From: Haliotis asinina
Taxonomy: Eukaryota; Mollusca; Gastropoda; Lepetellida; Haliotidae
Direction: 5' to 3'
NCBI RefSeq assembly: GCF_037392515.1
Contig: NC_090283.1
Span: 24,740,249-24,804,248 of the forward strand
Length of the DNA: 64,000 nucleotides
The notes below the pieces were generated by a model that had not been told where the DNA came from, did no database searches, and was given only the letters and a program-made list of their open reading frames with translations. Of this stretch, positions 21,487 through 57,065 are shown piece by piece; the stretch's first letter is position 1; the number at the start of each line of letters is the position of its first letter. The position numbers and the translations under genes were made by a program.

Positions 21487-23694
21487 TCAGTCAGTTCCGT
21501 TGGGTTCATGCTGTGAACTGTGAACTTTTATGCTGAACTCGATTGGTTCGACATTGATTAGGCCTAACCACAGTTCGTCCCGAGTTGCCTCTGTGTATCC
21601 ACATACAACTACGGCTTGAGTGAGGGGGTCATCATGCATCAAACCATACCGATGACACAACCTTGTTTCACACAAGTCTATCACTGTCGCGCAAGCTTTG
21701 ATAACAAAGTTAGCTTGCTGTGATGCTTCAAGCAATGACACTGTCCATGCAGGATGGACTTCAAGCCGGCGATGTATCCGCTGGAACTTGTGAAGGCCAC
21801 TGTCATCTGCCAGCCGACGGTTCCACTGTGCCACATGATACTCTCTGACTGACGTCTTCACTATTCTCCTCCACTTCAAACGCCCCAAGAAGCATCCTGA
21901 TTCTAGGATTTTTTCCAAGTGACAATAGAATAGGTATTTCTTGAGCACCCTGACTACATCAGGCACATATCCGACGGATGACGATGAGACGTTGTGTAAG
22001 TAGCACATCAACCGGGATACGAACAGTTTGTGAGGGAGATATTTGTGGTTCATGTTCAAGAGACCACCCAGGAAACACAACTTCCGCTGATCTATAACTG
22101 CCTCTAGGGGCAACACTCCAAGGAGTCCAAGACAACTATCAGTTCGAGTGGTACGAGGTAGGTCTTGGATTGACTTAATGACGTGTCTGTAAGATCTTTC
22201 CAGCATTAAGACCTCAACTTTGGAAAGGTTAGTCCACAACTCCGACCCCTACAGAGCTTTGGGAAGAAACACACGGCTTACAACTGTCAAGCTGATGATT
22301 GGGTTTGTAAATCGTGGGTGAAACCCACAAGCTGTCAGTGATCTCACGCCGGACCGCAAGGAAATGGCAGCTCGCGTCACATGCTCTATGCTTGACATGC
22401 TACTTGACAAGACTATTCCAACATGACGGATTGTATCCTTCCATGGGAGAGGTTGGTCATACAACTTAACTTCAACCTGCTTTAGTTGTTGAGATCTCGG
22501 TCGGTATGGAAAAGTCACTATTTCACTCTTGGCGGTTGACAGTACATATCTCCAGTCGTTGCTGTATTCCTCCGAAATCCTCACCATCTCTCTAAGGGCA
22601 GAAACCCTTGATGAAATGAGTGCCATATCATCTGCCTGAGTGGGAGAGCACACACTTAAGTCCATCACAGCAGCACCAAGGTTCGACTGAGAGAGTTTCT
22701 GGAGTAGGGAGTTTATGTACAGCAGATACAACTTCCCTGACAGCACGCCTCCTTGCCTGATGCCCTGCATCATGGGGATGGGCCTAGAATACATTGAGTC
22801 AAGGAACACTTGACACCTCATTCCAGTGTACATGTCGTCAAGAACAGTCCACAAGGAACCTTTGATTCCACTCTCGAATAACTTATATTTCAAACCATTG
22901 TGCCATACTGTGTCAAAGGCCTTTGATGTATCCAGGAACACAACGTGGATATCTTCCTTTCGCTCGTGGTAATGGTGTATCGTCTCTTGCAGGTTGAAGG
23001 ATGTGTGAAGGGCAGATAACTGAGATTGATATGCCATTTGCTGTGGGTGAGGAAAGGTGTCAGTTTGATTTAGACCGTCCAGTCGAGACAGGAGCACCAT
23101 CTCAAACACTTTGGACAACACAGGGGAGAGTGATATGCGCCGGTAAGAGTTCGGACCTTTCTTTGATTTATTACCACCTTTGTACAGAGGTACCAGGATG
23201 CTCTCACGCCAAGCTGTCGGGATATGTCCAGATTCAAGAATGATGCTATAGAGAGTTGCCAAGTGAAACATCAGGGTTCTGCCACCATAATTTAGGTGTT
23301 CGTATACGATCTTGTCAGCACCACCAGCTTTATTGTTTTTCAGCTTGGTACAGCACTCAGTGACTTCCAACTCTGTGAATTTCATTGGTTGTGGTACACG
23401 TTCTTCCTTGCATTTAACACGGATCTCCTCAACTAGGGATTCTATCTGCTTACAGAAGGAAGAATTAAAATTGTCTCGGTCTTTGGCAGTATATACATCC
23501 TGAAAATGGCTAGCCCAAGCATCAAATATGGCTTCTGGATCACTGTGCACTGTCCCTTGATACCGTATCGGGGAAAGTGTTGACTTGTGCCCCCCTCTGA
23601 TTGACCGCACACGATTCCAAAAGGTTCGGATATCAAGGTCATGGGCTTGTTCGAGTTCTCGGAAAGTCTGTGAGATGTGGTTGTCACTTGTCAC
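21487..23694 (-). pseudogene. Non-LTR retrotransposon reverse transcriptase, one stop, 5'-truncated
   Basis: A single minus-strand frame of about 735 codons is interrupted by one TAG at 22249-22251. The upstream part carries the RT domain: LKNNKAGGADKI, IPTAWRESILVPLYKG, SYRRISLSPVLSKVFE, VFLDTSKAFDTVW, GIRQGG and the active site as QADDMALIS. The first residue of the usual YADD box is Gln, which is unusual; the two catalytic Asp are kept. The C-terminal 250 residues resemble the region after RT in molluscan LINEs (PLEAVIDQRKLCFLGGLL). No endonuclease domain is present; the copy stops at 23,694 next to a 54-bp CR1-like scrap. Clade not assigned. I see no RNase H. Confidence 0.85.
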
Positions 23695-34545: not shown

Positions 34546-35013
34546 AACTGGGACACCTGAGGTCCCCATTAGTTTGACCTGTTCTGTGCTTCAATCCCTT
34601 GCTGCTCTAGAAGGATGAAAGGTATACAGACCAATGCCACAAAGACATACACCAGATTCCTCCTCATTTTTTTAATATCCATCAAGGCAAAAATGAAACA
34701 ATAAACAGCTCAAAAACAGTCGGATTCAATACAACATCTGTGTATATGAGTAAAAAAGTTATACATGTGCTGAGCACAAATTTGCAAAAACTAGCACAAA
34801 ATACAAAACAATCAACACAGTAGTATAGCAAAACAAAACAATAGCACAATACTGGACCTGTAACAGTTCTTAAGATTACACGTAATTAAACATCCAGTAC
34901 AGAGCTTCTTTGTGAGGAATTTTAGAACTTGCAAAGATGACGTAAACCAGGTTAGGTAGACACTGGATAGTCAACTTCATCTGATGTTTTGGTATTGGCA
35001 CTTGCTAGATAAT
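34546..35013. other. No gene seen
   Basis: A-rich unique DNA to the left of the large inverted-end unit. Confidence 0.4.
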
Positions 35014-36894
35014 CAGTCCGAGACGTAACGTGTACGCGAGACGGCCTATCGTCTCTTGTCCGCGAGACGGTGCGCTCCGCGGTACTAACTGAAGCGCTTC
35101 CCCCTAATTAATTCAATCACCGTGGAACCACCTCGATTGGGTGCGAACACGATGCAGGGTAATTAAAGCGTCCCGTAAAATCCCCAAGGGTGGTGGGGTA
35201 CTTGACAGTCGTGAATGAACAGGTTTTTCGATCTCGGATGCCACGCTTTCGTCATTTGCACTGAACAGATTACAACCTGCAGAATACAAGTTGTTTGTCC
35301 GACAAAATATTTACAATCATCCTAGGTTGATGCATACTTGGCCTCTGTATTTTCGATTTTTTCGGCACGTGAAAACATCGGGAAAGCAGAATACCACGCC
35401 CAAGCCCAAGGTCGGCTGTTTACACATGCCAATTACACAAAAATCAACTCATCGCTCATGAAAAGGTGATTTATTTCATTTGAATGTATTACTGGTGGAA
35501 ATGTCAACGTATTCATCTTGCAGAAAGTTACAGAATATTTTGAAACTAATACGACCCCTACCGCATCTTGCATGAATCAAAACTTTGCCAATTTCGTCAA
35601 GAGTAATCCTGCGAAAACTATTAAATCATTTGCATATTTTTCGGAAGTGACGTACGTCCATTGTGTAACTCCACACAGCACACTGAGAAAAGGGACTCGC
35701 GGTGCCAGCCAAAGCTGACATCTCGTACTGATCAAAATTAGTGTTATACTAAAATACCTGCTTCGATATTTCATTACAGCTCATGGTGTTGACATGTGGA
35801 TATCGTATCTTCCAGAGTACATATCAGTTTATGCCCGCATTAGCCGTGCATGCTGTTTTACAGAACATACAGTCCCTGTAAACGTGCGCGACTGTTTCAG
35901 CCAATCAAATGAAGCGTGAACCCCTCGTATGTGAGGTGTTATCCGAACGAAGTGAGCATGCAGTTTCATCGGTATACACACTATTTTGTAAACACATCTG
36001 AAAAAATGTTATTGATGTATGAAAATTAGGCTATGATGCATATCTCTCTGAATATCTGCACGGGTATGAATCTGCAATACTTCATTGCCCAGACGATTAC
36101 AGCAAACAGATTTGTAGTCTTACCAAACCGAACCAAATGCAAACGTTTCTGAACCTCTTGAAAGAGAAATGATGTTTCTTTTAAGACCACCGTAAATAGA
36201 TGTGCATTGTGTAAAATGACAGAAGTTGGGAAGAAAACAAACTAATTAGATGGTAACTGTTATAAGGTTTCTGGTGAGCCGCTCAAGCGGCTCACTGATC
36301 TCGTGTTTGCTTATTGCAAGTTGAGGATGGTGTTCCTCTGTACGGTCCAGCTTGCGAATGATGACTTGTTGATCATGAAAATGCATATAAGTAACTTGAA
36401 CCTAATTTATGCCTTCGGAAATTGACATGATTTGATAAAGGCATTTAAAAAAAGAAATCACACTTTGTGACATAATTTCGAAATGAAAAAAGTACGAAAA
36501 TACAAATTTAAATAAGGAAACATAACGCCCCCTGCAGGTTGTAATATCTTTCGCCCCCTCTTTCGATCAAACTCCATATGACCTGGCGGATACATTACGC
36601 ATTCGGTAAGATCATGTTAAGTCTACAAATCATCATTTTCTGAAGAATTGTGCATCATGTCGGCGATTTGCGTAACATCCCTCATCCTGGAAGACATCAT
36701 TCCTCCATCCCCTTCAGTGTGCACAGTATATTCAGGTAAGAATGTGTTGTTTCACTTACCCTGTACACATACAGGCAACTTCAATTAGATCGAATACATA
36801 CGTATTTGCATACATACCCTTTCTACAACAAAACTAACAACACACATTACCAGATCTACTTCAGGTAAAAACTGGGACTTTCTTGTTTACACAT

Positions 36895-37545
36895 ATTCTA
36901 TGTATATGCTTGAAACAGAAAAGGTTTTCGTTCCTGGAAGACAGCATGGCCAGTGGAAGACAACCAGCCCCGTGTATAATCCTGCATGCTGCGTTGGACT
37001 GGGAACGGCCAAATGCCCGTTTCCGCCAGGAGTCAGCAGAATGAGGGAACACGCACATTCCTGAGAACATTGCATTATTTGTTATAAAAACGAAAATGTA
37101 TGAAGCTTTCACTGAATGTTTTAGATGTATCACAGTATGTAGTACAGCTATGGTTATGAAACACAGGTACATATTTCAAATACATCAGTGCGGCGAATTG
37201 TGCTTGTCTTGGTTCATCTTTTTGGCCGAATGCAACACAATTAACTTTCATTTGGATTACGCAATTTATTGTATCACACACGTGACACTGGAGTGAAGGC
37301 TGGGCCGAACGCGGCCAGGCATAGTTAATGACTGTAGTTGGGTATCACTGCATATACAGGTGGAGACAGGCAACAGGTGTGATGCAGTACAGCACGTTAC
37401 TTCAGGGTGTGTACATCTAATGAGTTTGCAGACAGTTTACACGGCTATCTGGTGGACACGGGGGGCGATTGTGCAATTTCCTGTTTACGGTGCCTTTGTC
37501 GTTCGAGGTATATTTTATGATAGCTTGAAAACACATAATTAAATG
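36895..37545 (+). repeat. Internal duplication, left copy
   Basis: Diverged direct duplicate of 38,033-38,636 inside the 6.9-kb unit. Shared blocks are CTGGAAGACAGCATGGCCAG, TTTCACTGAATGTTTTA, GCGGCGAATTGT and CACGGCTATCTGGTGGACAC. Two blocks also match as peptides: VFVPGRQHGQWKTT, and AIVQFPVYGAFVVRG. A possible short upstream exon (36,657-36,735, ATG to TTCAG|GTAAGA) would join in phase to the first block through TGAAACAG|AA. That frame then ends at a stop. Gene status unproven. Confidence 0.5.
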
Positions 37546-38032
37546 CTAATTATATGTATTCCGTTTCCTGTTTGTGTTTGATAATCTGTGAAAGGCCACA
37601 GAAATGTTTATTTTGTGGTGACAAATATTCAAGTCGCATGGAGGTGGGCAAAATAGCGTTTTCTTACTTCATTCCGATTGAACTGATCACGTGATAACGA
37701 TCTCTCACGTGATAATGAGATGACATATTTATGAGGAAGAAAGGAATAAAATTGTTCCAGATGATTACAAACTCAAAATATTGTCCATAGCATTACTGAT
37801 CGACGACTTATAAACAGATTTTTATTGCTTAATGTTATAATGCTTTTCAAAGTGTTCTGTTTTGGTATGAAGGAGTTATTCTTGTACTGATTATCTTCGA
37901 AGAGTACTTGAAAGTGCTGTGCGTCGTTGTCAACACTATCATCGGCTTTCCTATCTTTTACTTTGGTAGATGATTTAAACAGTATTCATAGATAAAAACA
38001 ATACATTCAAAGCCAACACAGAAATATATATT

Positions 38033-38636
38033 TTATGTATATGCGTGAAATAGGAAGGGTTTTCCTTCCTGGACGACAGCATGGACAGGGGAAGACAACC
38101 AGACCCAGCTACAGTCCAGCATGTTGGTTTGGACAGCCTTTTCAGCCATCATCTGCAGAATGAAGAAATATGTGTGTACCAGGGAGTTTTGCATTATTTG
38201 TCATTATTACGTAACCTTTCACTGAATGTTTTATATGTATTTAGTATAACTATGGAAGTAGTTATATATTCTCGGACACAGGTGCATGTTCAAAATTCTT
38301 CAGTACGGCGAATTGTATTTGTCCCCTGACAGAATGAAACACAAATAAATTTCACACAGATGATGCAATATCACACACGACACTGTTTTCCAACAATGAT
38401 TAAGCCGGAATGAAGAGGATGCAGTCAGGCGTAGTTTATGACTGCAGTTGATTAGCCCTGAATATACAGGTAGGAGACTGGATACCCATTTATTGGGTTT
38501 GGAGACAGTTGACACGGCTGTCTTGTGGACACTGCCAGCCACTGTGCAGTTTCCTGCTGACGATGCTTTTATCGTCCGTGGTAAACTTAAAAACGCACAA
38601 TTAAATGCTAACTATTTTGTTTGGTGTTGTTAAGCT
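38033..38636 (+). repeat. Internal duplication, right copy
   Basis: Counterpart of 36,895-37,545 with CTGGACGACAGCATGGACAG, TTTCACTGAATGTTTTA, GTACGGCGAATTGT and CACGGCTGTCTTGTGGACAC. Peptide blocks are VFLPGRQHGQGKTT and ATVQFPADDAFIVRG. Both copies place a GT directly after the VRG codons (CGAG|GTATAT and CGTG|GTAAAC). Confidence 0.5.
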
Positions 38637-38797
38637 GGTAAAAGACAGAATCATGTTTATTCAGTTGTGACAAAAATTCAGTTGATATGTAGGTGAGCAA
38701 AATCTGCTCAGGGAAGTGGCATCTTCCGTGTGTAACAGGGATGGCTCGACTGATTTTATTGCTGCAGTTGACTAATAATACAGCTTTGAAACAATGT

Positions 38798-39391
38798 CAG
38801 TCTAAGTAAACTCAGTCTCAATGTTATTCCTTAAACACCACCACTGAGTTTAACAAAACCTAGCAGAAGGTCGCATCAGGCAACCTTTGAGCGACCTATG
38901 ACCGTCCAATCAATAGCGAGACGGTTATATAGATTTAACCAATCAGACAACGGCTACTACTTAGGGGCACAGATCTCTCCACAAACAACAATCCGCAGAA
39001 AATACAGATATTTGACCTGCGATATATACGCTTTGGGGTTTCTGTTTACATGGTGACCATTGGCTAATATTTCTGCAAGATGAGATCCCTTGAATATTGC
39101 CAAAACACTGTTTTCGGAGACAGTTAACTCTGTTGTCATGGTTGTAATGTGCGCCGTGTGAATCACCCAGAAGCGATCATACGCTAAATAACATTCGGAA
39201 TCGTTCGGGTACGAACCTTTTCGAGATAAAAAGTTCAAAAGGTGTGTGCGAATGTCCACTTTCGCGATTTGGAAAGCTGTGTTCTGATTGGTCAGTCCCA
39301 AAGGTTACCTGACGCGACCTCCCATAAGGTTTTGTTAGACTCAGTAATGGAGCGTAAGGAAAAGTACTGAGGCTAAGTTTACTTAGACTGG
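38798..39391. mobile_element. 594-bp MITE with long inverted repeats
   Basis: Arms of about 92 bp at 38,798-38,889 and 39,299-39,391 are inverted copies: CAGTCTAAGTAAACTCAG against CAGTCTAAGTAAACTTAG, then AACAAAACC and AGGTCGC(A/G)TCAGG. A second inner pair (AACCAATCAGACAACGG against GACCAATCAGAACACAG) extends the arms. GAAACAAT lies at 38,788-38,795 and 39,392-39,399. On the left two bases (GT) separate it from the element, so the 8-bp duplication is likely but not exact. Eight bases and a CAG start would suit hAT. No coding capacity. Lies inside the 6.9-kb unit, so it is the younger insertion. Confidence 0.7.
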
Positions 39392-39604
39392 AAACAATAT
39401 ATATGAATACATAAATGTCCGTCTAAATAACTCTTTTTTTTATCACATTCACGTCATCTGTTTAAAAGTGGAGAAATCGCATTTCTATAACATTACGTGT
39501 TGATGACAATGACATAAAACTTAAGGAAATGAGTGGTAATTCCTGCATGCAGTGTGTTCAAGAATACATTTTGCTTAAACTATTAAAGATCATGCAGTCC
39601 TCCG

Positions 39605-41640
39605 AAGTTACTTACCACTTGATGCGACTGAACATATTGAGCACCGGGTCTGCTCCCGTGGCAAAAGGCGTCTCTCGTAGTCGTAACGATCTTGTGGGTA
39701 AGGTTTGAGTGTCTGACGAGCAGTGGGAGGAAAGTAGATGTGTTTCATCGCGATTGTACACCTATGTGCATTCGTGTACACGAACAAGTACTTATACGAG
39801 GTAAATCTGCATGGAACAAGCTTTCAGAAAATATAAAGATCATGTTTGTGTGAAATGTGCACATAGGTGAAAATTGCCGTCAAAAACTGACTACTTTTGT
39901 TCGTGCTTCTGGGAAGCGTCTCTGGTACGCGTAACGAAATTGTGAGGACGCTGTGTGTGTCTGTGACGAGCGGTGGGTGGAAAGTAGATGTGTTTCATCG
40001 CGATTGTACACCTATGTGCATTCGTGTACACGAACAAGTACTTATACGAGGTAAATCTGCATGGAACAAGCTTTCAGAAAATATAAAGATCATGTTTGTG
40101 TGAAATGTGCACATAGGTGAAAATTGCCGTCAAAAACTGACTACTTTTGTTCGTGCTTCTGGGTAGCGTCTCTCGTACGCGTAACGAAATTGTGAGGACG
40201 CTGTGTGTGTCTGTGACGAGCGGTGGGTGGAAAGTAGATGTGTTTCATCGCGATTGTACACCTATGTGCATTCGTGTACACGAACAAGTACTTATACGAG
40301 GTAAATCTGCATGGAACAAGCTTTCAGAAAATATAAAGATCATGTTTGTGTGAAATGTGCACATAGGTGAAAATTGCCGTCAAAAACTGACTACTTTTGT
40401 TCGTGCTTCTGGGTAGCGTCTCTCGTACGCGTAACGAAATTGTGAGGACGCTGTGTGTCTGTGACGAGCGGTGGGTGGAAAGTAGATGTGTTTCATCGCG
40501 ATTGTACACCTATGTGCATTCGTGTACACGAACAAGTACTTATACGAGGTAAATCTGCATGGAACAAGCTTTCAGAAAATATAAAGATCATGTTTGTGTG
40601 AAATGTGCACATAGGTGAAAATTGCCGTCAAAAACTGACTACTTTTGTTCGTGCTTCTGGGTAGCGTCTCTCGTACGCGTAACGAAATTGTGAGGCCGTT
40701 TGTGTGTCTGTGACGAGCGGTGGGTGGAAAGTAGATGTGTTTCATCGCGATTGTACACCTATGTGCATTCGTGTACACGAACAAGTACTTATACGAGGTA
40801 AATCTGCGTGGAATAAGCTTTCAGAAAATATAAAGATCATGTTTGTGTGAAATGTGCACATAGGTGAAAATTGCCGTCAAAAACTGACTACTTTTGTTCG
40901 TGCTTCTGGGTAGCGTCTCTCGTACGCGTAACGAAATTGTGAGGACGCTGTGTGTGTCTGTGACGAGCGGTGGGTGGAAAGTAGATGTGTTTCATCGCGA
41001 TTGTACACCTATGTGCATTCGTGTACACGAACAAGTACTTATACGAGGTAAATCTGCATGGAACAAGCTTTCAGAAAATATAAAGATCATGTTTGTGTGA
41101 AATGTGCACATAGGTGAAAATTGCCGTCAAAAACTGACTACTTTTGTTCGTGCTTCTGGGAAGCGTCTCTGGTACGCGTAACGAAATTGTGAGGACGCTG
41201 TGTGTGTCTGTGACGAGCGGTGGGAGGAAGGTTGGTTTGTTTCAACACGATTGTACACCTATGTGCGTTAATGTACACGAACACGTACATGTACGAGGTA
41301 AATCTGCGTTGAATAAGCTTTCAGAAAATATCGCAAGAAATATTCGCCATGTACATTACGCACGCTTTACACAGTCTCAGACTCACGACGGATGTTTTGA
41401 CTGGGCAATTTAGTCAGGCATCAGTTACCTCCCATTAATGACACGCGAGACGATTCGCGCGGTTTCGAAGAAAGTAAACATGTTTCAACACAATAACAAA
41501 CAGGTGTGCGTTGGTGTGCATCGAAAGCTGCATATATATTATGAATCTACGATAAATGAGCTTTCAGAAAATACTAAATGTAAGTTTCTGAAAATTATGC
41601 ACATAGGTGAAATTCGCAGTTGAATATCGCCAATTTTTGC
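39605..41640. repeat. 250-bp tandem array, about eight units
   Basis: Units start at roughly 39,647, 39,897, 40,147, 40,397, 40,645, 40,894, 41,144 and 41,394, with spacing of 248-250 bp. Units 2 to 6 are nearly identical; the first and the last two are diverged. Each unit contains TCTCGTACGCGTAACGA, related to the subterminal GTACGCGTAACGGGA next to the right inverted end of the host unit. A 68-codon frame opens in most units (TTG start) and is still traceable in the diverged last units. Confidence 0.9.
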
Positions 41641-41914
41641 TCAAATTTTGCACATTTTTGTCACTTTTTGACAATTTAATTTCCTCTTTTTATGTTTTCA
41701 TTCACGTCATCCAATAACTTGACCATCTGTCAATGACTGTAGCAAATTTTGTTTAATTATTTTCACAAATAACAATTTTAGACATGTTTTTGTGTGACAT
41801 GCAGAATTTCTCTCTCTGTGATCAGGGAGTCACGCGTATGAGTGACCCCCTCTCAGGTAGTCACTTGTACGCGTAACGGGAGACCGTCTCGCGTACACGT
41901 TACGTCCTCTACTG
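41641..41914. other. Right subterminal region of the 6.9-kb unit
   Basis: T-rich DNA, then GTCACGCGTATGAGTGACCC and GTCACTTGTACGCGTAACGG before the inverted end. No gene. Confidence 0.5.
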
Positions 41915-41967
41915 ATAATAGTGTTAGTACCTATACCGAAACATCAAAAGAAATTTCAACTTAATGA

Positions 41968-50393: not shown

Positions 50394-51687
50394 CAGTGTT
50401 CCCAGAAATTATTGAGAAAATCTTTGTTTTTTTTCTAATGATGCTAAGATTGGAAAAAGGGCTTTCACTATGCACTAAGCATACTAAATAAGGGAGACAA
50501 CTCTTGAAGGCTTAGAAGGCAGCTCATTATGTCAAGAGTTATCTCCCTTGTCTGAGCAGACGGTTTCCTGTGTTTACATGGCAGAATTTACAGCAAGAGA
50601 GAAAAGAAAGCCCATTCTAGATGATTTTGAAAGGGGTGAGGCTGATGCTAAAGTGTTAGCTTGTAGACATGGTATTCCTCTGTCTACAGTATACAGAACT
50701 TTGAAGAATATTCAAACAGGAACCGGGATAGAGCACAAAGCAGGGGCAGGTCGGCCTAGGAAATTCAGTGTTGTGGATCGCCGAAGACTTGGGCAGATTG
50801 TGAGTAGGGGCAAATTGAAAAGTGTTGAGAACATCAGAAATGAAATGATTAGCAGAGGAAGTCCTCAGGTATGCAATGAAACAGTTAGGCAGGAATTACA
50901 GAGACTTAATTGGGTGAAAAAACGTGGAATTCGCTCGCCGTTGGTGAAAGATGCACAAAAGGAAAAACGTTTAAACTGGTGTCGGGCTCATGAAAATCAA
51001 GATTGGGATAATGTTTTCTTTTTGGATGAAAGTTCTGTTTGGCTTTTCCCTAATTGTGTGAAAATTTGGACCAAAGATACTGTCAAACCTATCTACCAGC
51101 GACCAAAACATAGCCCGAAGGTTCACATGTGGGGTGGCATATCGGCTCACGGAGTGACGCCATTGTGTGTTTTCATGGGAAACTTGACAAAAGAAAGATA
51201 CGTTGACATTCTAAATGGTCACCTTCTTCCGACAGCACAAACACTGTATGAAGATGATTGGATTTTCCAGCATGATAATGACCCAAAACACACTGCGCGC
51301 TACACAAAACAGTGGTTGTCGGGCGAAAATGTTCAAGTTTTAGACTGGCCCAGTTACAGCCCAGACCTAAACCCAACTGAGAATGTGTGGGGAGTCATGA
51401 AGGACAGAATAAACCAAAAGGGACTGAGAAATATTGAAGATATGAAGGCCGAGGTGGTCCAATATTGGGATACCCTGTCACACGATTACCTACAAACTTT
51501 GATGGGTAGTGTGCCTAGGCGTATTCAGGCGTGCATTGCTGAGCGAGGTCTAACTAAGTACTAAAACAAGACTGAGACTGTAAAAGGATGATGTTTTAAC
51601 ATGTTTATGTAAGTAAAACGCCAGAAGTTAATAAACGTAATGAGTTACATGACGCAACATGATTCTCAATAATTTCTGGGAATACTA
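50394..51687 (+). mobile_element. Tc1-like transposon, apparently complete (1,294 bp)
   Basis: Both ends lie next to TA (50,392-50,393 and 51,688-51,689). The left end reads CAGTGTTCCCAGAAATTATT and the right, reverse-complemented, TAGTATTCCCAGAAATTATT. They match for about 25 bp with two differences. Between them is one uninterrupted DD34E transposase gene, with an AATAAA at 51,630-51,635 before the right end. An 18-bp hairpin (50,490-50,507 with 50,532-50,549) sits just upstream of the gene. The intact frame and near-identical ends point to recent insertion. Confidence 0.9.
50578..51564 (+). CDS. Tc1-family DD34E transposase
   Basis: 328 aa from ATG 50,578 to TAA 51,564; the open frame extends upstream without an ATG. 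It is a cut-and-paste transposase acting on the element's inverted ends. Residues about 3-50 form a helix-turn-helix (AKVLACRHGIPLSTVYRTLK). GRPRKF at 59-64 is the AT-hook-like link typical of Tc1. A second DNA-binding part follows (SVENIRNEM...CNETVRQEL). The catalytic triad is visible: D150 (FFLDESSVW), D233 (FQHDNDPKHT) and E268 (SPDLNPTENVW), with exactly 34 residues between D233 and E268. The glycine block MWGGIS lies between the two Asp. Length is normal for the family (about 330-350). No stop or frameshift is seen, so the enzyme may be functional; activity itself cannot be judged from sequence. Confidence 0.93.
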   Translation: MAEFTAREKRKPILDDFERGEADAKVLACRHGIPLSTVYRTLKNIQTGTGIEHKAGAGRPRKFSVVDRRRLGQIVSRGKLKSVENIRNEMISRGSPQVCNETVRQELQRLNWVKKRGIRSPLVKDAQKEKRLNWCRAHENQDWDNVFFLDESSVWLFPNCVKIWTKDTVKPIYQRPKHSPKVHMWGGISAHGVTPLCVFMGNLTKERYVDILNGHLLPTAQTLYEDDWIFQHDNDPKHTARYTKQWLSGENVQVLDWPSYSPDLNPTENVWGVMKDRINQKGLRNIEDMKAEVVQYWDTLSHDYLQTLMGSVPRRIQACIAERGLTKY

Positions 51688-54529: not shown

Positions 54530-57065
54530 CAATTTGTAATGTAAATCACAAGAGTTTAAACTGTAGTAGGGTCCACTAGGATCTGTGGTGTAGTACACGT
54601 CGACAGGGTCTAAACTGTAGGACAACTCACTTGGATCTGTGTAGTATACGTCACCTGGGTCTAAACTGTAGTGCAACCCACTTGGATCTGTTCTATAGTA
54701 CAATTCTCCGTGGTCTCTGCTGTAGTACAACCCACTAGGACCTGTGTAGTACAGCCTAATCTGTAGTACAAATCACTAGGGTCTAATCTGTAGTGCAAGT
54801 CACTAGGGTCTAATCTGCAGTACAAGGCTCTAGGGTGTAATTTGTGGTACAATTCATTAGGGTGAAATCTGTAGTACAATCCGCTAGGTTGTAATCTGTA
54901 GTACAATCCGTTACGGTGTGGTCTGTAGTACAATGTACTAAGGTCTAAGCTGTAGTCCAAGCCACTAGGGTCTAATCTGTGGTACAAGTCACTAGGTTGT
55001 AATTTGTAGTTCAAGTCGCTGTAGTGTAGTCTGTAGTACAATGTACTAAGGTCTAAGCTGTAGTCCAAGCCACTAGGGTCTAATCTGTGGTACGATCCAT
55101 GGGGGTCTAATCTGTAGTGCAAGCCTTTAAGGTGTAATCTGTAGTACAAGCCTCTAGGGTCTAATCTGTAGTATAATCCACTAGGTTGTAATCTGTAGTA
55201 CAATGCACTAAGGTCTAAGCTGTAGTACAAACCACTAGGGTGTAATCTGTAGTATAAGCCACTACGGTGTGATTAGAGGTAACATTCATCAGGGTGAAAT
55301 TCGTAGTAGAAGGCCGCTAGGGTGTAATCTGTAGTTCAAGGCATTAGAGTGTAGTAGAGAGTAGAGTGTACAAGTCGATGGGGAGTAACCTGTAGTACAA
55401 GCCACAAGGGTCTAATCTGTAGTACATGCCACATGCGTGTACTCTGTAGTACAAGCCACTAGGGTGTAATCTGCAGTACAAGCCACTAGGGAGTAATCTG
55501 TACTACAAGTCACTAGGGTGTAATCTGTACTACAAGGCACTAGGATGTAATCTGTAGCACAAGGCATTAGGGTGTAATCTGTAATTTAAGCCACTGGGGT
55601 GTAGTCTCTAGTACAAGCCACAAGGGTCTAATCTGTAGTACATGCCACTAGGGTGTAATCTGTTGTACAATGCACTAGGGTGTAATCTGTAGTATAAGCC
55701 GCTAGGGTGTAATCTGTAGTACAGGGCACCAGGATGTAATCGTGTAGCACAAGCCACTAGAGTGTAATCTGTAGTACATGCCAGTAGGTTGTAATCTGTA
55801 GTAGAAGCCACTAGGGTGTAATCTATAGTACAAGGCATTAGGGTGTAATCTGTAGTACAAGGCATTAAAGCCTAATCTGTAGTACATGCCACTAGGGTCT
55901 AATCTGTAGTATATGCCACTAGGTTGTAATCTGTAGTACAAGGCATTAGGACATAATCTGTAGTACAAGCCACTAGGGTCTAATCTACAGTACAAGCCTC
56001 TAGGCTGTAATCTGTCGTACAAGGCATTAGGGTATAATCTGTTGTACAAGGCATTGGGGTCTAATCTGTAGTACAAGGCATTAGGGTCTAATCAGTAGTA
56101 CAACCACTAGGGTCTAATCTGTAGTATATGCCACTAGGTTGTAATCTGTAGTACAAGGCATTAGGTCTAATCTGTAGAACAAGCCACTAGGGTATAATCT
56201 GTAGTACATGCCACTAGGATGCAATCTGTAGTACAAGCCTCTAGGGTCTAATCTGTAGTACAAGCCACCAGGTTGTAATCTATAGTAACGGCCGCTAGGG
56301 TGTAATCTGTACTACAAGCCACTAGGGTGTAATCTGTACTACAAGCCACTAGGGTGTAATCTGTAGTACAAGCCACTAGGGTGTAATCTGTAGTACATGC
56401 CACTAGGGTGTAATCTGTAGTACAATGCACTAGGGTCTAATCTGTAGTACACGCCACTAGGGTTTAATCTGTAGTACATGCCACTAGGATGTAATCTGTA
56501 CTACAAGCCACTAGGGTGTAATCTGTACTACAAGCCACTAAGGTGTAATCTGTAGTACAAGCCACTAGGGTGTAATCTGTAGTACATGCCACTAGGGTGT
56601 AATCTGTAGTACAATGCACTAGGGTCTAATCTGTAGTACACGCCACTAGGGTGTAATCTGTAGTACAAGCCACTAGGGTCTAATCTGTAGTACATGCCAG
56701 TAGGTTGTAATCTGTAGAACAAGCCACTAGGATGCAATCTGTAGTGCAAGCCTCGAGGGTCTAATCTGTAGCTCAAGCCACCAGGTTGTAATCTATAGTA
56801 AAAGCCGCTAGGGTGTAATTTGTAGTACAAGCCACAAGGGTGTAATCTGTAGTACATGGCATTAGGTCCTAATCTGTAGTACAAGCCTCTAGGGTGTAAT
56901 CTGAAGTACAAGGCATTAGGGTGTAATCGATAATACAAGACTCTAGGGTGTAGTAGAAGTCACTAGGGTGTAATCTGCAGTACAATTGACTTGGATCTAA
57001 CCTGTAGTACAATTCACTAGGGTCTAAACTGTAGGTAGACGTGACCGGGGGTCTAGCCTGTAGTA
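54530..57065 (-). repeat. 27-bp minisatellite, about 2.5 kb
   Basis: About 90 imperfect 27-bp units (GTAGTACAAGCCACTAGGGT plus GTAATCT). On the minus strand each unit gives nine codons (YYRLHPSGL, YYRLDPSAL and variants). Since 27 is divisible by three, frames stay open up to 189 codons. The array contains occasional indels and at least two higher-order segments: the stretch near 56,330-56,460 is repeated near 56,510-56,640. No start context, splice site or flanking coding sequence supports a gene. Confidence 0.9.

What the first reader, a model, noticed from the sequence alone, without database searches (positions are those of the whole stretch)
35014..41914. A 6.9-kb inverted-end unit with no recognisable transposition genes
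Seen: 23 identical inverted bases at the two ends, a CAGT start on both, and ATAAT (or GATAAT) on both flanks. Known: terminal inverted repeats with a fixed-length target duplication mark DNA transposons. Inference: this is one mobile unit of 6.9 kb that carries a duplication, a MITE and a 250-bp array but no enzyme gene. A 5-6 bp duplication with CAGT ends fits no common animal superfamily that I can name with confidence, so it may be a new non-autonomous family or a large passenger of a known one.
Basis: partly seen in the sequence, partly recalled or inferred. Interest (0 to 1): 0.7.

Follow-up and report, generated by a model that had tools for sequence, protein, structure and literature searches.

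The report
Recently mobile transposon carrying satellite array
The 6.9-kb stretch is one copy of a recently active family of DNA transposons that seems to carry no enzyme gene of its own but a tandem array of very variable size, so it is presumably moved by an enzyme made elsewhere, probably one of the hAT type, which was not found.

Summary
In the window's genome the 31-bp ends occur 213 times (<=3 mismatches; reversed control 0). Of 199 listed ends, 120 form 60 inverted pairs: 59 left/right, one right/right, no left/left; the 59 are 0.8-13.1 kb long, median 7.6. Exact 5-bp target duplications occur in 18 of 21 copies checked, mostly nTnAn. Two insertions have related empty sites, 74-78% identical. 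One copy is 99.96% identical to the window's over 6.9 kb: movement was recent. No copy read has a 150-aa frame. The ~250-bp array varies from about 3 to 30 units, also between copies at most 0.16% different in the left part; its motif resembles the core of the ends. Best reading: a large non-autonomous family moved in trans by a hAT5-like transposase. Membership is unproven: 0 of 199 ends lie within 20 kb of 134 hAT dimerisation-domain matches, and a relaxed end search stayed below control. Inverted similarity outside the ends is a pre-existing palindrome.

The parts
35014..41914 (.). whole transposon copy, 6901 bp, no recognisable gene
   Evidence: same exact left end in 20 of 20 fetched copies and exact right end in 19 of 20 within 9.5 kb; L010 99.96% identical over the full length
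35014..35044 (+). left end (CAGTCCGA + 23-bp core)
   Evidence: 99 genomic matches at <=3 mismatches
41884..41914 (-). right end (CAGTAGAG + the same 23-bp core)
   Evidence: 103 genomic matches at <=3 mismatches
35009..35013 (.). target-site duplication ATAAT, left copy
41915..41919 (.). target-site duplication ATAAT, right copy
35024..35069 (.). two quasi-palindromic 20-bp sites of the left end (35024-35043 and 35050-35069)
   Evidence: 4 and 7 mismatches to the idealised palindrome
41828..41904 (.). three quasi-palindromic 20-bp sites of the right end (41828, 41859, 41885)
   Evidence: 6, 4 and 4 mismatches to the idealised palindrome
39668..41331 (.). tandem array, period about 250 bp, 6.7 units; seven end-like quasi-palindromes start at 39669, 39917, 40167, 40417, 40665, 40914, 41164
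   Evidence: about 3 to 30 units in other copies
36893..37654 (+). first copy of an old internal duplication (64% identity)
38028..38703 (+). second copy of the internal duplication
38798..39390 (.). nested MITE-like passenger with 92-bp inverted arms (79%), flanks GAAACAATGT / GAAACAATAT
   Evidence: present in 20 of 21 copies compared, absent only in L027
34973..35008 (.). left half of a pre-existing palindromic target, not part of the unit
41920..41955 (.). right half of the same palindromic target, not part of the unit

Best explanation
This is a young, large, non-autonomous cut-and-paste DNA transposon family moved in trans by a transposase that works like those of the hAT superfamily, most likely the hAT5 group (5-bp duplications). 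Shown: exact ends, 5-bp target duplication with nTnAn preference, recent movement, no long reading frame in the copies read, fixed left/right end polarity, hypervariable internal array. Inferred: a hAT5-like enzyme made elsewhere in the genome binds the quasi-palindromic core of the ends, pairs one left with one right end, cuts the unit out and inserts it; the array units carry related sites and gain or lose copies by replication slippage or by template slippage during repair after excision.
For: 40 near-identical places scored for each end, out of 172 and 201 first-look candidates. 213 end matches against control 0. 59 left/right pairs, 1 right/right, 0 left/left; for Hermes (hAT), symmetrised left/left ends are reported inactive in insect cells and of little activity in human cells, right/right without activity (passages of PMC10368747). 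Exact 5-bp duplication in 17 of 20 copies and in the 13.1-kb copy, 18 of 21. Of the 17, T at position 2 in 14 and A at position 4 in 16; the 13.1-kb copy's GTAAC makes it 15 and 17 of 18, which by chance (base frequency 0.295 assumed) has p about 3e-6 and 1e-8; Hermes prefers nTnnnnAn (passages, PMC10368747, PMC2803484). hAT5 = hAT with 5-bp duplications (passage, PMC12730594). Related empty sites for L020 and L027. Quasi-palindromic core at both ends, like the quasi-palindromic STR1-STR2 pair bound by Hermes BED domains. The genome holds many hAT dimerisation-domain matches, several in long open frames.
Against: No enzyme-bearing relative found: 0 of 199 listed ends within 20 kb of 134 PF05699 matches, nearest 45.5 kb; 8 loci with long hAT frames lack the end core; the relaxed pattern gave 3 matches against 11 in its control. 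The ends read CAGTC/CAGTA, whereas the hAT tip consensus as I recall it has G at position 5. That hAT5 elements prefer nTnAn was not seen in any source, and another hAT lineage, Buster, has nnnTAnnn (passage of PMC3517528). Three of 21 copies lack a perfect 5-bp duplication (L016, L018, L022). One right/right pair exists. The array motif is not clearly better conserved than the rest of the unit.
Confidence: 0.6

Rival explanations
1. The family is mobilised by an enzyme of a superfamily not recognised here (or of a known non-hAT one with 5-bp duplications); the likeness to hAT is convergence.
For: No hAT dimerisation-domain match near any of 199 listed ends; no sign of a relative with the same first 17 bp but other sequence inside; the tips do not fully fit the recalled hAT consensus.
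Against: 5-bp duplication and nTnAn rule fit hAT5 / hAT; the asymmetric quasi-palindromic ends resemble Hermes.
Confidence: 0.22
2. Transib-like element (also 5-bp duplications, recalled).
For: Length of the target duplication only.
Against: Ends start CAGT, not CAC(A/G)(A/T)TG as recalled for Transib; duplications are nTnAn, not the GC-rich sites recalled for Transib.
Confidence: 0.05
3. A larger unit whose ends lie at about 34973 and 41955 (80-bp imperfect inverted repeats, 7-bp direct repeat TCAACTT).
For: Inverted similarity of the outer flanks, 0 of 2000 shuffles as good, 14 of 4914 random pairs of window stretches as good; TCAACTT direct repeat.
Against: The other copies stop exactly at 35014 and 41914 in unrelated flanks; 19 of 20 copies have no clear inverted flanks.
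Confidence: 0.01
4. Autonomous element whose transposase is split into small exons and was missed.
For: A 7-kb length is unusual for a non-autonomous element (recalled); the family has moved recently.
Against: No stop-to-stop frame of 150 aa in the window copy and 20 others, one of them read only for its first 9.5 of 9.9 kb; none over 115 aa in the 13.1-kb copy; ten window frames gave no Pfam match above cut-off, best E 0.068; a MITE-like passenger and a variable array fill much of the interior.
Confidence: 0.05

Closest known systems
hAT5 group of hAT transposons (Kapitonov and Jurka 2007, as cited in PMC12730594; passages seen)
   Same: 5-bp target duplication
   Different: no transposase in any copy read; no hAT5 end sequence was available to compare
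Hermes, a hAT element (PMC10368747 and PMC2803484; passages seen)
   Same: T/A rule at the second and the second-last base of the duplication; left and right ends distinct and both needed; quasi-palindromic subterminal sites
   Different: 8-bp duplications; Hermes encodes its own transposase
Tetris foldback element of Drosophila virilis (PMC4079207; abstract and outline seen)
   Same: apparently non-autonomous; carries tandem repeats of about 220 bp that also form kb-size satellite-like arrays
   Different: Tetris repeats lie in its terminal inverted repeats; here one array lies internally, toward the right end
Cg_HINE Helentrons of the Pacific oyster (PMC7492417; abstract and outline seen)
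   Same: non-autonomous elements with a central satellite-like array
   Different: Helentrons are another class; here inverted ends and 5-bp duplications are present

Membership tests
hAT5 (hAT superfamily) | 5-bp target-site duplication | tested here: met
   18 of 21 copies exact; two related empty sites
hAT5 (hAT superfamily) | target preference of the hAT kind (nTn..nAn) | tested here: inconclusive
   nTnAn clearly present, but no source read states that hAT5 has this rule
hAT5 (hAT superfamily) | short inverted ends with hAT tips (YARNG, recalled) | tested here: inconclusive
   CAGTC / CAGTA: first three bases fit, fifth does not
hAT5 (hAT superfamily) | hAT transposase in an element that shares the ends | tested here: not met
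   0 of 199 listed ends within 20 kb of 134 PF05699 matches (150 of 303 candidates were scored); 8 hAT loci without the core. A partial search, so absence is not proven
Transib | 5-bp duplication (recalled) | tested here: met
Transib | CACWRTG tips (recalled) | tested here: not met
   tips are CAGT
Helitron/Helentron with satellite core | no target duplication, no terminal inverted repeats (recalled) | tested here: not met
   both are present
Foldback elements (Tetris-like) | long inverted ends that contain the tandem array | tested here: not met
   inverted ends of 31 bp; array in one place only; the old copy L048 alone has about 480-bp inverted ends, of the right type on both sides

The most novel reading that the evidence does not exclude
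The mobilising enzyme belongs to a transposase group not yet recognised, and the array of end-like quasi-palindromes is a working part of the element (a variable platform that gathers transposase) whose unit number is reset at nearly every move, so that the family scatters satellite arrays over the genome.
Probability: 0.12. Interest if true: 0.75.

Novelty: new variant of a known kind. Interest (0 to 1): 0.42.

Why it matters
A unit of typically 6-9 kb without a recognisable gene that has spread recently is large for a non-autonomous element. Near-identical copies that differ mainly in array length allow a direct measure of how fast a satellite array changes size relative to point mutation and transposition, and of whether units that resemble transposase sites drive satellite growth.

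Tried and rejected
Outer boundaries at 34973/41955 with TCAACTT: rejected by the copies. Coding remnants: ten of the open frames listed against Pfam, nothing above cut-off. Helper by near-identical ends: none near a hAT match. Helper by a relaxed end, CAGTNNNNGACGTAACG followed by three non-family bases: 3 matches against 11 in the control. Eight loci with long hAT frames (L038-L045): no end core. The 13.1-kb copy as a possible autonomous copy: the extra length is array. The right/right pair (L048) as a possible symmetrical helper: an old copy without long frames and without a 5-bp duplication. IMG/VR scan with the 21-bp core: 0. Unit spacings printed came from a best-match regular expression that skips units and are not used. 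A general preference for palindromic targets: not seen. A family search with PF14291 and an empty-site search with the window's own left flank did not complete. Three of the 103 right ends were not listed and so are missing from the pair count; up to 11 of the 213 ends are of neither listed type.
Full report
WHAT WAS CHECKED. The unit 35014-41914 has 23 identical inverted bases (35022-35044 and 41884-41906), CAGT at both tips and ATAAT on both flanks. The inverted similarity runs on outside these ends for 30-40 bp (0 of 2000 shuffles as good, but 14 of 4914 random pairs of window stretches), which at first suggested that the true ends lie further out.

COPIES SETTLE THE BOUNDARIES. The window lies in a 1.14-Gb assembly of 159 contigs. 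No call names the species; repeats in the window look to me like those of abalones, which is recall and was not tested. The first 201 bp of the unit gave 172 candidates, of which 40 were scored, the window's own included: 26 at the maximum score, the other 14 also listed at 100% rounded identity. The last 200 bp gave 201 candidates, 40 scored. All 20 have the exact 31-bp left end, and 19 of 20 an exact 31-bp right end within 9.5 kb; the twentieth (L011) has its right end at 9,893 bp. In the five of the first eight loci that lie in the window's orientation, the left flanks are unrelated right up to position 35014 (the other three were not turned in that script), and the flanks printed for the fetched copies agree.

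TARGET DUPLICATION. 17 of 20 copies (19 fetched plus the window's) have an exact 5-bp duplication; the exceptions are L016 (none), L018 (shifted TTAA) and L022 (one mismatch). The 13.1-kb copy has GTAAC on both sides, making 18 of 21. In the 17, position 2 is T in 14 and position 4 is A in 16; with GTAAC it is 15 and 17 of 18, p about 3e-6 and 1e-8 at an assumed base frequency of 0.295. Two insertions lie in repeated DNA. The joined flanks of L020, with one TSD copy removed, align without gap to other units of the tandem array beside it (five alignments shown, 74-78% identical); those of L027 align across the junction to a related sequence in the flank of L010 (78%, one gap, 13 bases from the joint; a second, weaker match at 73% has ten gaps, two of them a few bases from the duplication). 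These serve as natural empty sites and fit the boundaries. Only the window copy has clear inverted flanks (p 0.0013 against random sites of the window; the next, L023, 0.0497), so the outer palindrome belongs to the target.

GENOME-WIDE ENDS. The end pattern with four free bases has 213 matches at <=3 mismatches over its 27 fixed positions, 0 in the reversed control. Left-type ends: 99; right-type: 103, of which 100 are listed; so at most 11 ends are of neither type at this threshold. Of the 199 listed ends 120 form 60 inverted pairs under 25 kb: 59 left/right, one right/right, no left/left; the 59 are 822 to 13,111 bp long, median 7,599; 79 ends are unpaired. Eight unpaired left ends, seven on C6 and one on C7, share nearly the same left flank (L029-L035, L037), so one older insertion was probably multiplied with its surroundings.

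AGE AND CONTENT. L010 is 99.96% identical to the window copy over 6.9 kb. Over the left 4.4 kb or so the 20 copies compared (window copy included, L027 left out) differ by 0.02-2.6%. These were the best-scoring places, so this is the young end of the family; older copies exist at about 85-94% (the eight above) and 85-93% over the longer matches of L048. No stop-to-stop frame of 150 aa exists in the window copy or the 20 fetched ones (L011 read to 9.5 of 9.9 kb), and none above 115 aa in the 13.1-kb copy. Thus 22 of the 59 left/right pairs, the window's own included, were read, L011 in part; a gene in one of the other 37 is not excluded except for PF05699 matches. Ten window frames matched no Pfam family above cut-off. 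The nested MITE-like piece is in 20 of 21 copies, so it was on board before the family spread.

THE ARRAY. By Tandem Repeats Finder the array has 2.8 to 18.7 units of about 250 bp in the copies read (broken into pieces in L019 and L024), and in the 13.1-kb copy it spans 7.5 kb, about 30 units. The window copy, L010, L011, L015, L020, L021 and L028 differ by at most 0.16% from each other in the left part yet have 6.7, 6.7, 18.7, 10.7, 9.7, 14.7 and 10.7 units. The array thus changes size much faster than the sequence around it changes. Seven array motifs in the window are 20-bp quasi-palindromes akin to the core of the ends; the unit has twelve such sites at <=7 mismatches to an idealised palindrome: two at the left end, seven in the array, three at the right end. 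At that loose threshold the whole window has 16 and shuffled windows have 4-15, so only the closer sites (<=5 mismatches) stand out: ten in the unit, one elsewhere in the window (no shuffle count was made at that threshold). The motif is not clearly better conserved than the rest of the repeat unit (on units picked by that motif), so a function is not shown.

WHAT MOVES IT. 5-bp duplications define the hAT5 group (passage in PMC12730594); Hermes, a hAT element, prefers nTnnnnAn, has distinct ends that cannot freely replace each other, and binds a quasi-palindromic subterminal pair through BED domains (passages of PMC10368747 and PMC2803484). Not all hAT elements share that target rule: Buster has nnnTAnnn (passage of PMC3517528). 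The unit fits in kind. But the enzyme was not found: 134 PF05699 matches (150 of 303 candidates scored), none within 20 kb of 199 ends, nearest 45.5 kb; no end core in eight hAT loci; a relaxed end search below its control. I therefore say that it works like a hAT5 element and do not file it as a member.

NOVELTY. Satellite-like arrays inside non-autonomous elements are known (Tetris, PMC4079207; Cg_HINE Helentrons, PMC7492417; abstracts and outlines). Searches of the paper library for Haliotis transposons, abalone or mollusc hAT elements with satellite DNA, hAT5 and internal tandem repeats in hAT elements showed, in their listings and in the passages read, no description of this family. The library lacks most subscription papers, and Repbase was not available. 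A family with a median length of 7.6 kb, 5-bp duplications and an internal array of end-like sites is a new variant of a known kind.

Noticed in passing
window 38798-39390: Nested MITE-like piece with 92-bp inverted arms (79%) and near-identical 10-bp flanks GAAACAATGT / GAAACAATAT, present in 20 of 21 copies of the host unit.
   Followed up: partly
L029-L035 (C6, 23.7-32.0 Mb) and L037 (C7): Eight left ends share nearly the same left flank: an older insertion probably multiplied inside another repeat, mostly in one 8-Mb stretch of C6.
   Followed up: partly
L048 (C2:40421600-40425050): Old 3.2-kb copy with right-type ends on both sides (about 480 bp inverted, 88%).
   Followed up: partly
window 50488-51561 (+): Open frame of 358 aa that looks like a Tc1/mariner transposase (by eye, no search).
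   Followed up: no
window 21490-23694 (-): Two adjoining frames of 253 and 481 aa that look like the reverse transcriptase of a LINE (by eye, no search).
   Followed up: no
window 54757-57034: Minisatellite of 84 units of 27 bp.
   Followed up: no
L020, around 987-1867: A transposon copy sits beside and within a local minisatellite array, which gives natural empty sites.
   Followed up: yes
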